A stretch of 64,000 bases of DNA from Erysipelothrix anatis (lineage in GTDB: Bacteria; Bacillota_I; Bacilli_A; Erysipelotrichales; Erysipelotrichaceae): positions 1-64,000 of the forward strand of contig NZ_WTSX01000008.1 in assembly GCF_009828745.1 (NCBI RefSeq). The letters run 5' to 3'. Below, one piece after another: positions 781 through 41,816 of this stretch. Each line of letters starts with the position of its first letter. The first letter of the stretch is position 1. The notes beneath the pieces are model-generated. The model saw only the letters and a program-made list of their open reading frames with translations, searched no databases and was not told where the DNA came from. The translations under genes and the position numbers were made by a program.

Positions 781-857
781 TGGCGCGCTCGACAGGAGTT
801 GAACCCATAACCTCTTGAGCCGTAATCAAGTGCTCTATCCAGTTGAGCTACGAGCGC
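781..857 (-). tRNA. tRNA-Arg (ACG), discriminator G73
   Basis: 77-nt cloverleaf with acceptor stem GCGCTCG/CGAGCGC and anticodon ACG in loop TTACGGC. The discriminator is G, followed by encoded CCA. A34 is normally deaminated to inosine, so this tRNA should read CGU, CGC and CGA. It is the probable ligand of the tandem T-boxes at 39100-39572: their predicted specifier is CGC, and the UGGC bulge of the first pairs with the GCCA end. Confidence 0.95.
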
Positions 858-14516: not shown

Positions 14517-16157
14517 CTACATTTGTTCAGGTGCTGAAACCCCAACAAGGTTTAGTGCATTTTTTAATGTAATTTGTGTTGCCACAAGTAAGTTTAGACG
14601 TTGTTGTGTTAAAGCTGGATTACTTGGATCATTGACTTTTAATTCTCCATAGAAACTATGGAAATATGCTGCTAATTCTTGAATATAGTTTGTAATTTTA
14701 TGAACGGTACGATTTTTAGCTGTATCCGCAACTACAGAGCTGAATTCGTTAATATGTTTAAGTAGCTCTACTTCTTTTTGATGTGTTAGTAAATCAATAA
14801 CAGGTACACGATTTACATCACCTGCTTGACGCAAGATTGATGCGATGCGCGCATGCGCATATTGTGCGTAAAAAACAGGGTTGTCATTTGATTGTGTTCG
14901 GGCAAGACCCAAATCAAAATCAAGTGGTGTCTGTAGTGCACGGCTTGCAAAGAAATAACGGGCTGCATCAACACCAATATCATCAATAAGATCCACAAGA
15001 CCTACAGCATTTCCTGTACGTTTGGACATCTTAACTTCTTCCCCATTTTCCACAAGGCGTACCATTTGAATGATATCGACATCCATGACGTCTTTATATC
15101 CAAAGGACTCAAGCGCAGCATTCATTCGTGGAATATATCCATGATGATCGCCACCCCAAAGGTTGAGAAGACGTTGATAACCACGTTCTAGTTTGTAGAG
15201 GTGGTAAGCAATATCTGGTACAAGATATGTGTATGAACCATCTGATTTAATCAGCACTCGGTCTTTATCATCACCATATTTTGTGGATGCAAACCATAAT
15301 GCATCATCTTTTTCATAAGTTTCGCCATTTGCTTTCATTTCTTCTAAGCGACGGACAACACTACCATTGTCGTAAACGGATTTTTCACTGACCCATGAGT
15401 CGAATGAAACCCCAAATTTACCAAGATCACGTTCAATACGTTCCAGTTCAAACTCAATACCAATTTTTTTAAAGAATGGTTCCCATTCTTCTTGTGGTTT
15501 TGTGAGCCATGCGTCACCTTCACGTGCAATAACATCTTGGGCAATTTGTTTAATGTCTTCACCATGATAGCCGTCTTCAGGCATCACAGCTTCAATACCA
15601 TACGCTTGTTGATAACGTGCATACAGTGAATGGCTTAGCATTGTGATTTGATTTCCAAGGTCATTAACATAATATTCACGTAAGACATCATAACCTGCAT
15701 ACGTCATGATTCGTGTTAATGAATCACCCCATGCCGCACCGCGAGCATGTCCAACATGAAGTTGTCCTGTTGGGTTTGCACTAACGTACTCTACAAGGAC
15801 ACTTTTTCCAGCGCCTACTGTGGAGCGACCATAGTTATCTTTAGCATCTAAGACCGTATTGATAACATCGCCCAATACTGATGGTTTCATAAAAAAGTTA
15901 ATAAATCCTGGTCCCGCAACTTCCACCTTTTGGATCATTGGGTTTGCTGCAATGGCTTCTGTAATAATAGTTGCTATTTCGCGTGGATTTTTCCCCACAC
16001 GTTTGGTTAAGCGCATTGCAATATTGGATGAATAATCACCCATTTCAGATTTGTTTGGAATTTCTAACATAACTAAGCCCGGTTCATGATCGATACCGAA
16101 TGCTTCTTTTATGATGGTTTCTAGCGCTGCGACTAGATTTGTTTCAATTGAATTCAT
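14517..16157 (-). CDS. argS: Arginyl-tRNA synthetase
   Basis: 546-residue class I synthetase that charges tRNA-Arg, usual length. An N-terminal additional domain (1-110) is followed by the HIGH motif HVGH at 134-137 in SANPTGQLHVGHARG, the KMSKR motif near residue 375, and the C-terminal DALR anticodon-binding domain (last 120 residues). It follows degV by 12 bp and is probably co-transcribed. Its product should influence charging of the tRNA-Arg sensed by the T-boxes at 39100-39572. Confidence 0.96.
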   Translation of the reverse strand: MNSIETNLVAALETIIKEAFGIDHEPGLVMLEIPNKSEMGDYSSNIAMRLTKRVGKNPREIATIITEAIAANPMIQKVEVAGPGFINFFMKPSVLGDVINTVLDAKDNYGRSTVGAGKSVLVEYVSANPTGQLHVGHARGAAWGDSLTRIMTYAGYDVLREYYVNDLGNQITMLSHSLYARYQQAYGIEAVMPEDGYHGEDIKQIAQDVIAREGDAWLTKPQEEWEPFFKKIGIEFELERIERDLGKFGVSFDSWVSEKSVYDNGSVVRRLEEMKANGETYEKDDALWFASTKYGDDKDRVLIKSDGSYTYLVPDIAYHLYKLERGYQRLLNLWGGDHHGYIPRMNAALESFGYKDVMDVDIIQMVRLVENGEEVKMSKRTGNAVGLVDLIDDIGVDAARYFFASRALQTPLDFDLGLARTQSNDNPVFYAQYAHARIASILRQAGDVNRVPVIDLLTHQKEVELLKHINEFSSVVADTAKNRTVHKITNYIQELAAYFHSFYGELKVNDPSNPALTQQRLNLLVATQITLKNALNLVGVSAPEQM

Positions 16158-39050: not shown

Positions 39051-39064
39051 ATAATAATAAAGTT

Positions 39065-39093
39065 TGACAATCCAAGTGAAACCTAGTATATTA
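39065..39093 (+). promoter_or_regulatory. Promoter of the T-box/arginine transporter operon
   Basis: Perfect TTGACA, 17 bp, TATATT. The start near 39100 leads directly into T-box 1. Confidence 0.8.
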
Positions 39094-39099
39094 CTCTTA

Positions 39100-39327
39100 A
39101 ATCGTTGAACAAGAGAGTAAACTTAAGAATGCCTCAAGCGAGTCAGGGTTGGTGGAAGCCTGATAGGAAACAATAAGTCGAACCGCACTTGGGAGATATT
39201 AGATTGAACTTAGTAGGTCTAATCGCCAACCTAGCGTTATAGGAAAGTGGTTTATCATACATGATAAGCAATTAGAGTGGCACCGCGTTAATGACGTCTC
39301 TAGATACAAATATCTAGAGATTTTTTT
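39100..39327 (+). ncRNA. T-box riboswitch 1, predicted arginine (CGC)
   Basis: Complete T-box leader. Stem I starts with AGAGAGTA, carries AAGCGAG (AG bulge) and the distal GGTGGAAGCC loop. Its 3' side returns as GAAC-CGC-A-CTTG, so the specifier codon is CGC (39185-39187), arginine. The T-box proper AGAGTGGCACCGCG has the acceptor-pairing bulge UGGC (39278-39281), which matches a tRNA ending G73-CCA. Terminator and competing antiterminator are present. Uncharged tRNA would open the terminator. Confidence 0.88.
39296..39327 (+). terminator. Regulated terminator of T-box 1
   Basis: Stem TCTCTAGATA/TATCTAGAGA followed by seven T's. Confidence 0.88.
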
Positions 39328-39344
39328 ATTTCTAGATCATCAAT

Positions 39345-39572
39345 AACATCAAAGAACAAGAGAGTAATTATTGGGATGTGATAGCGAACTAAGGATGGTG
39401 GAAGCTTAGTGACTCAACAATAATGAACCGCACTTGGAAGATGGTTATGTGAACTGAAGTAGCAAAACCCGCAGATACTGCGTTACCAAAAAGAGTGGCT
39501 AAATGATATTTAGCAATTAGAGTGGTACCGCGATAACTTCGTCTCTAGACAAATCTTGTCTAGAGTTTTTTT
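39345..39572 (+). ncRNA. T-box riboswitch 2, predicted arginine (CGC)
   Basis: Second complete T-box, about 250 nt after the first. AGAGAGTA, a perfect ATTATTG/CAATAAT helix, TAGCGA and GGTGGAAGC come first, then GAAC-CGC-A-CTTG with specifier CGC at 39429-39431. The T-box AGAGTGGTACCGCG has bulge UGGU (39523-39526), which pairs with A73 or, by wobble, G73. It has its own terminator directly before the transporter gene, so read-through needs both switches open. Confidence 0.88.
39543..39572 (+). terminator. Regulated terminator of T-box 2
   Basis: Stem CTCTAGACAA/TTGTCTAGAG followed by seven T's; the transporter Shine-Dalgarno follows. Confidence 0.88.
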
Positions 39573-39592
39573 ATTATAAGGAGAGAAAGAAT

Positions 39593-41089
39593 ATGAAGAA
39601 ACTATTATTAAGTCTCATCATGGTGTTAGTCCTCACAGCGTGTGGTGCAAATACAACATCAACTGAGACCGCACCACCTCAAAATATGCTTGAGGAAATT
39701 CAACAACGTGGAGAACTCATTGTTGGAACTTCCCCTGACTATGCGCCATTCGAGTTTATTGATCCTTCAAAATTAGGTCAAGATCAATACGTTGGTGCTG
39801 ACATCGATCTTGCCCAACAAATTGCGGATGACTTAGGGGTTAAGTTAACCGTTAAAGCGATGAATTTTGATGACATCCCGACGGCTGTCAAAGAACGTAA
39901 ATTTGATATCGGATTATCCGGTTTTACGTATACAGATGACCGTGCTAAAGTTATTCAGTTCAGCGAACCTTACGATAACTCCGAATCCCTTTGCCAAGGA
40001 TTCCTCGTTCGTTCTGACAATACATTCACATCACTTGATGATTTCAATAATGCGACAGTTACCGTTCAAAACGGTTCAGTCCAACAACAATATACGGAGC
40101 AACAACTCCCAGGGGCTAACGTTCGATTCGTTACAGCTCTAGAAGACGGTGCATTAGAACTAAAAGCTGGTAAGACAGACGCTGTTGCGGTAAGCTGTAA
40201 ATCAGGTGAAGGTTTCCTTGCCAACAATCCAGAACTTAAACTTAGTGATACACTCTTTGCAGTTAGCGATGCCATCGGTACAATGGTTATCATGCCATTG
40301 GGTGAACCAGAATTACTTGAAGCAGTCAATACAAGCATTATCGCAGTTAAAGACGCTGGTCTTTATACACAATGGTTAAGTGATGCGAAAGCATTATCTG
40401 CACAGGTTGGAGAACTTGGTGCCGCTAAACCAAATGTCTTTACATTGTTAGGAGCCTACGGAAATGTCTTCTGGCAAGGAACATTGGGAACAATTTGGTT
40501 ATCACTAATCGTTGTCTTCTTCGGAACAATTGGTGGAGCATTACTTGCTCTCGCTAAAATGTCGAAGTTTAAACCATTACAATGGTTTGCGACTGCATAT
40601 ATTGAACTAGTACGTGGAACGCCAATTCTCTTACAACTCTACTTATTTGTATTTGGAGGGGCACAGTTCTTCCCGAATGGTATTAGTGATCAAATGTGGG
40701 TCATCTTTGCCTTAATCTTCAACTCCAGTGCCTACGTTGCAGAAATCTTCCGTGCTGGAATTCAAGCTGTCGACAAAGGACAATTTGAAGCTGCGAAGAG
40801 CTTGGGTCTTTCTGATCGCAACATGATGATTAAAGTTATTATGCCACAAGCCGTTAAAAATATCTTACCGGCACTTGGAAACGAATTTATCACAATGATT
40901 AAAGAAACATCATTAGCATCTATCTTCTTTATTAACAGTTTAATGACATCACAATCCATTGTTTCAGCTGCAACACACATGAAACTTGAAGCATTAATGA
41001 TTGTTGGGGTTATCTACTTTATTCTGACATTCTCACTTTCAAAAGTTGTTCAATACTTTGAAAAGAAAGGACAAACAAACCATGACTAA
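39593..41089 (+). CDS. Amino-acid ABC transporter binding protein-permease fusion, predicted arginine
   Basis: 498 residues. A lipoprotein signal peptide (lipobox LTAC, Cys at about 17) is followed by a family 3 solute-binding domain (about 33-265: [32 protein letters not shown]). Then comes a permease domain of about five helices (285-495) with the EAA loop [21 protein letters not shown]. Fused binding-permease proteins of this type import Gln, Arg or His. The twin CGC T-boxes upstream argue for arginine. AAGGAGAG precedes the ATG. It overlaps the ATPase gene by 8 bp. Confidence 0.9.
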
Positions 41090-41816
41090 CGAACTCATCA
41101 AAATTAAAAATCTTAAAAAGAACTATGGTAGTCTCGAAGTCCTCAAAGGCATCGACTTCACCATCAACAAAGGTCAAGTTATTTCAATTATCGGGCCTTC
41201 AGGATCGGGTAAATCGACATTTCTAAGATGCTTGAATCTTCTCGAAGTTCCGACAGATGGAACGATTGAATTTAAAGAACAAGTCTTAAGTGCTAAAGGG
41301 AAATCACTGGACAAGATTCGCCAAGAAATTGGAATGGTCTTCCAACACTTCAACGTCTTTCCCAATTTAACGGTACTTGAGAACATCACATTAGCTCCTA
41401 CACTTGAGAAAGGTATTTCTAAGGAAGATGCTAAAGCACAAGCATTAGAACTCCTAGAGCGCGTTGGATTGGCTGACAAGGCTGATACTTTCCCAACGAA
41501 ACTATCAGGGGGTCAGAAACAACGGTTAGCGATTGTGCGCGCCTTGGCGATGAATCCTGATGTCATGCTCTTTGATGAACCAACCAGTGCATTAGACCCT
41601 GAAATGGTAAAAGATGTTTTGGATGTTATCAATCAATTAGCAGACTCGGGAATGACTATTGTGATCGTAACACACGAAATGAACTTTGCGAAACACATCA
41701 GTGATACCGTATTGTTCATGGACGGCGGTATTATTGAAGAAGCTGGAACACCTTCTCAAATTTTCGATAATCCAACAAGCCCTCGTACTCAAGAATTCCT
41801 CAGTAAAGTTTTATAA
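41082..41816 (+). CDS. Amino-acid ABC transporter ATPase (GlnQ/ArtP type)
   Basis: 244 residues. Walker [10 protein letters not shown] is near 37-45, Q-loop [11 protein letters not shown] near 83, signature LSGGQKQR near 137, Walker B VMLFDEP near 157 and H-loop VTHEM, ending with the usual [12 protein letters not shown]. The start at 41082 is preceded by AAAGGA; a longer in-frame form inside the permease gene is rejected. It works with the fused binding-permease protein. Confidence 0.93.

What the first reader, a model, noticed from the sequence alone, without database searches (positions are those of the whole stretch)
39100..39572. Two complete tandem T-box riboswitches, both predicted arginine-specific
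Each unit has Stem I landmarks, the GAAC-NNN-A-CTTG specifier context, a T-box sequence and its own terminator. In both the specifier reads CGC (39185-39187 and 39429-39431). Serial T-boxes act as a stricter, logic-AND-like gate on the transporter. Tandem T-boxes are known but uncommon. The specifier position was worked out by comparing with known glycine and isoleucine T-boxes recalled from memory.
Basis: partly seen in the sequence, partly recalled or inferred. Interest (0 to 1): 0.68.

Follow-up and report, generated by a model that had tools for sequence, protein, structure and literature searches.

The report
Tandem arginine T-box riboswitches before transporter
Two back-to-back RNA switches that sense uncharged arginine tRNA sit in front of a probable arginine uptake operon in an Erysipelothrix bacterium; this is a real feature, but a new example of an arrangement already described in related bacteria.

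Summary
Two complete T-box leaders lie in series at 39096-39304 and 39343-39549. They score 128.5 and 123.3 bits against Rfam RF00230 (cut-off 93), and each has its own U-tailed terminator. One strong promoter-like site lies upstream and none lies between them.

The arginine reading is well supported. In the same genome, 12 other T-boxes carry a cognate codon at the same register, 11 before genes whose amino acid is independently clear. The CGC codon is invariant before an amino-acid ABC transporter in all 13 Erysipelothrix genomes, while the base before it varies. The genome has two tRNA-Arg(ACG) genes whose G73 can pair with both UGGN boxes. The downstream protein's closest solved relatives are arginine-binding proteins, and no argininosuccinate synthase passes its cut-off.

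Tandem leaders occur in four of the 13 genomes, always before a fused binding-protein/permease gene; single leaders precede split genes. Tandem T-boxes before artQ-glnQ-artP operons are already published, and CGC is the commonest arginine specifier in TBDB. The "AND gate" reading is reasonable but untested. Ordinary, new member of a known kind.

The parts
39064..39092 (+). promoter-like site TTGACA-N17-TATATT, the only strong one upstream; none on the + strand between the two units
   Evidence: 11 of 12 consensus matches; consensus match only, not shown to be used
39096..39304 (+). T-box leader, unit 1
   Evidence: RF00230 128.5 bits, E 3.5e-28, model 1-219
39184..39186 (+). specifier codon CGC (Arg) of unit 1
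   Evidence: Rfam alignment, coordinates checked, frame calibrated on 12 other T-boxes
39278..39281 (+). UGGC of the T-box bulge, complementary to the GCCA 3' end (G73) of tRNA-Arg(ACG)
   Evidence: sequence; tRNA sequence
39296..39328 (+). intrinsic terminator of unit 1, whose 5' arm (GUCUCUAG) is shared with the antiterminator
   Evidence: 11-pair hairpin plus T run; folding
39343..39549 (+). T-box leader, unit 2
   Evidence: RF00230 123.3 bits, E 7.5e-27, model 1-219
39429..39431 (+). specifier codon CGC (Arg) of unit 2
   Evidence: Rfam alignment, coordinates checked
39523..39526 (+). UGGU of the T-box bulge (U-G wobble with G73 of tRNA-Arg(ACG))
   Evidence: sequence; tRNA sequence
39543..39573 (+). 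intrinsic terminator of unit 2
   Evidence: 10-pair hairpin plus T run; folding
39593..41089 (+). regulated gene 1: fused substrate-binding protein (SBP_bac_3) and permease (BPD_transp_1) of a polar amino-acid ABC transporter, probably for arginine
   Evidence: Pfam; closest solved relatives are arginine-binding proteins
41082..41816 (+). regulated gene 2: ATP-binding subunit (GlnQ/ArtP type), overlapping the end of gene 1
   Evidence: Pfam ABC_tran; best NCBIfam GlnQ, below its cut-off
781..857 (-). tRNA-Arg(ACG), the predicted ligand; one of two identical copies in the genome
   Evidence: ARAGORN

Best explanation
Two complete transcriptional T-box riboswitches in series read the charging state of the arginine tRNA that decodes CGC, tRNA-Arg(ICG). 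In each unit the CGC specifier pairs with the anticodon; if the tRNA is uncharged its NCCA end pairs with UGGN, the antiterminator forms and RNA polymerase passes. A charged tRNA leaves the terminator to form. Polymerase must pass both units, so read-through is roughly the product of the two, giving low leak and a sharper switch-on of an arginine ABC importer when arginine runs short. Shown here: two full T-boxes, CGC in both, two terminators, one promoter-like site upstream, a matching tRNA, an arginine-type transporter. Inferred: actual tRNA binding, read-through and cooperativity.
For: Both units over the RF00230 cut-off. Two terminators, and one strong + strand promoter-like site upstream with none between the units. 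Frame calibration: at the Rfam specifier position the genome's other T-boxes read CUC-leuS, GUC-valS, AUC-ileS, AAC-asnS, UUC-pheS, UCU-serS, ACA-thrS, AUG-metN, AUG-metQ, GAC-hisS/aspS, GCU-alaS (after local re-registration of the closing stem), and AUG before an amidohydrolase. CGC is invariant in all 15 homologous units from 11 genomes of the genus, while the preceding base is C or A, and G in the two remaining genomes, where the T-box precedes a different amino-acid ABC operon. A further genus of the family has a CGC T-box before a similar operon. 21 of 43 consensus pairs show compensatory changes. tRNA-Arg(ACG) is present twice with G73; a TadA homologue is present. The binding protein's best solved relatives are arginine binders; no argininosuccinate synthase over cut-off.
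Against: No expression or binding data. The specifier pairs with I34 by I-C, not by a Watson-Crick G-C pair, which most T-boxes prefer (PMC7778990). Unit 2 uses a U-G wobble to G73. The A after CGC is also invariant, so conservation alone does not exclude the +1 frame (GCA, Ala) for unit 2. The substrate of the transporter is inferred.
Confidence: 0.93

Rival explanations
1. One or both units use the +1 frame (GCA) and sense tRNA-Ala(UGC), so that the operon responds to alanine.
For: Four tRNA-Ala(UGC) genes with A73 are present; UGGU of unit 2 would pair with A73; the A after CGC is invariant. The TBDB method allows -1/+1 frames (PMC7778990).
Against: All other T-boxes of the genome fit frame 0, including this genome's alaS leader, which uses GCU. 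UGGC of unit 1 mismatches A73. The A after the specifier is a consensus T-box residue in Rfam. The transporter resembles arginine binders.
Confidence: 0.04
2. Only one unit is functional; the other is a decaying duplicate that adds little beyond an extra terminator.
For: Nine of 13 genomes of the genus manage with a single T-box at their CGC-controlled amino-acid ABC operon. The units are only 64% identical.
Against: Both units keep full scores, specifier, T-box and terminator despite considerable divergence between them, and two other species of the genus also keep both.
Confidence: 0.12
3. The two units sense different arginine tRNAs and integrate two signals.
For: UGGC in unit 1 versus UGGU in unit 2.
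Against: Both specifiers are CGC, which only tRNA-Arg(ACG) can read among the four arginine tRNA species found (ACG, CCG, CCU, UCU). U can wobble-pair with G73, and single units in relatives also carry UGGU.
Confidence: 0.02

Closest known systems
Tandem T-box riboswitches of artQ-glnQ-artP operons in Bacillota (PMC12452182)
   Same: Two complete T-boxes in series before an amino-acid ABC transporter operon; that paper reports T-box T-box in 94-100% of contiguous cases for these genes, and triples in 6%.
   Different: Erysipelothrix is not named in the text of that paper; here the binding protein and permease are one fused gene.
Tandem trp, ilv-leu and thrS T-boxes of Bacillota (PMC12452182)
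   Same: Serial complete T-boxes, expected to give a digital, pseudo-cooperative response.
   Different: Different amino acids and targets.
Tandem histidine T-boxes before the histidine transporter in five Enterococcus species (PMC9413887)
   Same: Same architecture before an amino-acid transporter; double T-boxes are described there as possible recent duplications that might give a sharper response.
   Different: Histidine specifier rather than arginine.
Arginine T-boxes in TBDB (PMC7778990)
   Same: CGC is 52% of arginine specifiers there, the commonest one.
   Different: No difference seen in the specifier.

Membership tests
T-box leader (RF00230) | Covariance model score over the gathering cut-off for each unit | tested here: met
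   128.5 and 123.3 bits against 93
T-box leader (RF00230) | Stem I with specifier codon matching a host tRNA | tested here: met
   CGC in both; tRNA-Arg(ACG) x2, pairing through I34
T-box leader (RF00230) | T-box sequence with UGGN able to pair with the tRNA acceptor end | tested here: met
   UGGC and UGGU against G73
T-box leader (RF00230) | Antiterminator in competition with an intrinsic terminator | tested here: met
   GUCUCUAG shared by both hairpins; terminators called in both; competition itself not measured
T-box leader (RF00230) | Response to uncharged tRNA | not testable with these tools
   needs in-vitro transcription or a reporter assay
Tandem T-box arrangement | Two complete sensor-plus-terminator units in one leader, no promoter between | tested here: met
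   the promoter part rests on a consensus scan
Arginine ABC importer (ArtPQ-like) | SBP family 3, permease and ATPase with arginine specificity | tested here: inconclusive
   Domains met. No NCBIfam arginine model passes its cut-off. Best structure relatives are arginine binders, but glutamine and lysine binders follow within a few Z units

The most novel reading that the evidence does not exclude
The tandem leader and the fused binding-protein/permease gene travel together in part of the genus, so that duplication of the sensor was selected along with the gene fusion, with the two units tuned differently (UGGC Watson-Crick versus UGGU wobble to G73) to give a graded two-step gate on arginine import.
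Probability: 0.12. Interest if true: 0.35.

Novelty: new member of a known kind. Interest (0 to 1): 0.22.

Why it matters
It is a clean natural example of two same-specificity T-boxes in series, with close relatives that have only one before a homologous operon. A 2020 review states that the mode of action of tandem T-boxes remains unknown (PMC7583486), so this genus offers a natural single-versus-tandem comparison. Otherwise it is routine regulation of amino-acid uptake in a probable arginine auxotroph.

Tried and rejected
A scan of genome contigs with the transporter protein named the species (Erysipelothrix aquatica, 100% identical protein) but gave few useful relatives. A first pattern search over 294 genomes used a wrong spacer range and missed even the window, so it says nothing; the corrected search is and is strict, so it underestimates the spread of arginine T-boxes. 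A tree of the 15 T-box units was mostly unresolved: it cannot tell one old duplication from several. A -1 frame (CCG, proline) was rejected because the base before CGC varies (C, A or G), no tRNA with anticodon CGG was found, and tRNA-Pro(UGG) has A73, which UGGC of unit 1 cannot pair with. A pair-count call was malformed and was not repeated because one search already gave compensatory changes.

Full report
Observation. The whole window was compared with all Rfam families. Besides tRNAs, only two matches pass: T-box leaders at 39096-39304 (128.5 bits) and 39343-39549 (123.3 bits), both + strand, both covering the full 219-position model, against a gathering score of 93. They are 38 bases apart. 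Each is followed by a U-tailed hairpin, 39296-39321 and 39543-39565, whose 5' arm also supplies the 3' strand of the antiterminator. The only strong + strand promoter-like site is TTGACA-N17-TATATT at 39064-39092; none is called on the + strand between the units. The units are 64% identical to each other, so this is not a recent perfect duplication or an assembly repeat.

Specifier. The Rfam alignment puts CGC in the specifier position of both. Unit 2 has CGC at 39429-39431. Because specifier frames can slip, I calibrated on the same genome. It holds 14 T-boxes. The other 12 give, at the same position, CUC before leuS, GUC before an acetyltransferase gene and valS, AUC before ileS, AAC before asnS, UUC before pheS, UCU before serS, ACA before thrS, AUG before metN and metQ, AUG before an amidohydrolase, GAC before hisS-aspS, and GCU before alaS; for alaS, and only there, the closing stem had to be re-registered by one base by hand. 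Gene identities here were read from the translated sequences and rest on my knowledge of these protein families. The rule 'three bases, one base, then the closing strand of the stem' is also the one used by TBDB (PMC7778990).

Relatives. The window comes from Erysipelothrix, with a transporter protein identical to that of E. aquatica. In 11 of 13 genomes of the genus a homologous transporter is preceded by one or two T-boxes, all with CGC; the base before is C or, once, A. In the other two genomes a CGC T-box with G before it precedes a different amino-acid ABC operon. Another genus of the family also has a CGC T-box before such an operon. Four genomes have two units (the window's, a near-identical second assembly, and two further species) and all four have the binding protein fused to the permease; the seven with a single unit before the homologous operon have separate genes. 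In the near-identical genome both units lie at contig ends, on separate contigs, so their linkage there is inferred. RNAalifold on the 15 units finds 43 pairs, 21 with compensatory changes. A tree of the units is too weak to date the duplication.

Ligand and target. The genome has 54 tRNA genes; the arginine ones are ACG (two identical copies), CCG, CCU and UCU. tRNA-Arg(ACG) ends in G73-CCA, which pairs with UGGC of unit 1 and wobbles with UGGU of unit 2. CGC would be read by I34; a TadA-like deaminase is present, slightly below the curated cut-off of the model. The operon is a fused SBP_bac_3/BPD_transp_1 protein and an ATPase. By sequence the nearest solved binding protein is 4h5f, followed by 4i62 and 6svf; a predicted model (pLDDT 85) ranks 4h5f and 4i62 first, with several entries titled as arginine-binding (STM4351, T. 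maritima ArgBP, an ancestral arginine-binding protein) among the top eleven. That 4h5f and 4i62 are arginine complexes is from memory, since their titles are cut off in the output. Argininosuccinate synthase is not found over its cut-off although all 14 control genomes ring, which suggests dependence on uptake. argS lies in this window at 14520-16148 on the - strand and has no T-box.

Mechanism. The best-supported reading is two transcriptional T-boxes in series on the same tRNA. Read-through needs antitermination twice, so expression should go roughly as the product of two probabilities: low leak and a sharper rise on arginine shortage. This last step is inference; it is also what the literature proposes for tandem T-boxes (PMC12452182; PMC9413887), and a 2020 review calls their mode of action unknown (PMC7583486).

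Novelty. A 2025 survey lists contiguous T-boxes as significantly enriched before artQ, glnQ and artP in Bacillota, mostly pairs (PMC12452182). CGC is the commonest arginine specifier in TBDB (52%). I found no paper describing this case in Erysipelothrix, but the library is partial. The finding is real and correctly interpreted, and is an ordinary new member of a known kind.

Noticed in passing
L120 (own genome C6:48400-53000), T-box at C6:48425-48615: The T-box before hisS-aspS carries GAC (Asp), not a histidine codon, by the same frame rule.
   Followed up: partly
G009:C110, G009:C112 and G010:C40 (L117, L119, L118): Two Erysipelothrix genomes without a close homologue of this transporter carry CGC T-boxes before other amino-acid ABC operons, so the arginine T-box seems to stay while the transporter differs.
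   Followed up: partly
window 39593-41089 versus L060, L061, L062, L063, L064, L065, L066: Binding protein and permease are fused in the genomes with tandem T-boxes and separate in those with a single T-box.
   Followed up: partly
G002:C12 and G002:C48 (L086, L087); L015: A near-identical draft genome breaks between the two T-box units, so short-read assemblies may hide this tandem.
   Followed up: no
L007 (own genome C11:177803-178047): A methionine-type (AUG) T-box precedes an M20-like amidohydrolase gene, similar to the amhX association with metNIQ operons reported in PMC12452182.
   Followed up: no
window 14520-16148 (-): argS lies in the same window and has no T-box, although many other aminoacyl-tRNA synthetase genes of this genome do.
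   Followed up: partly
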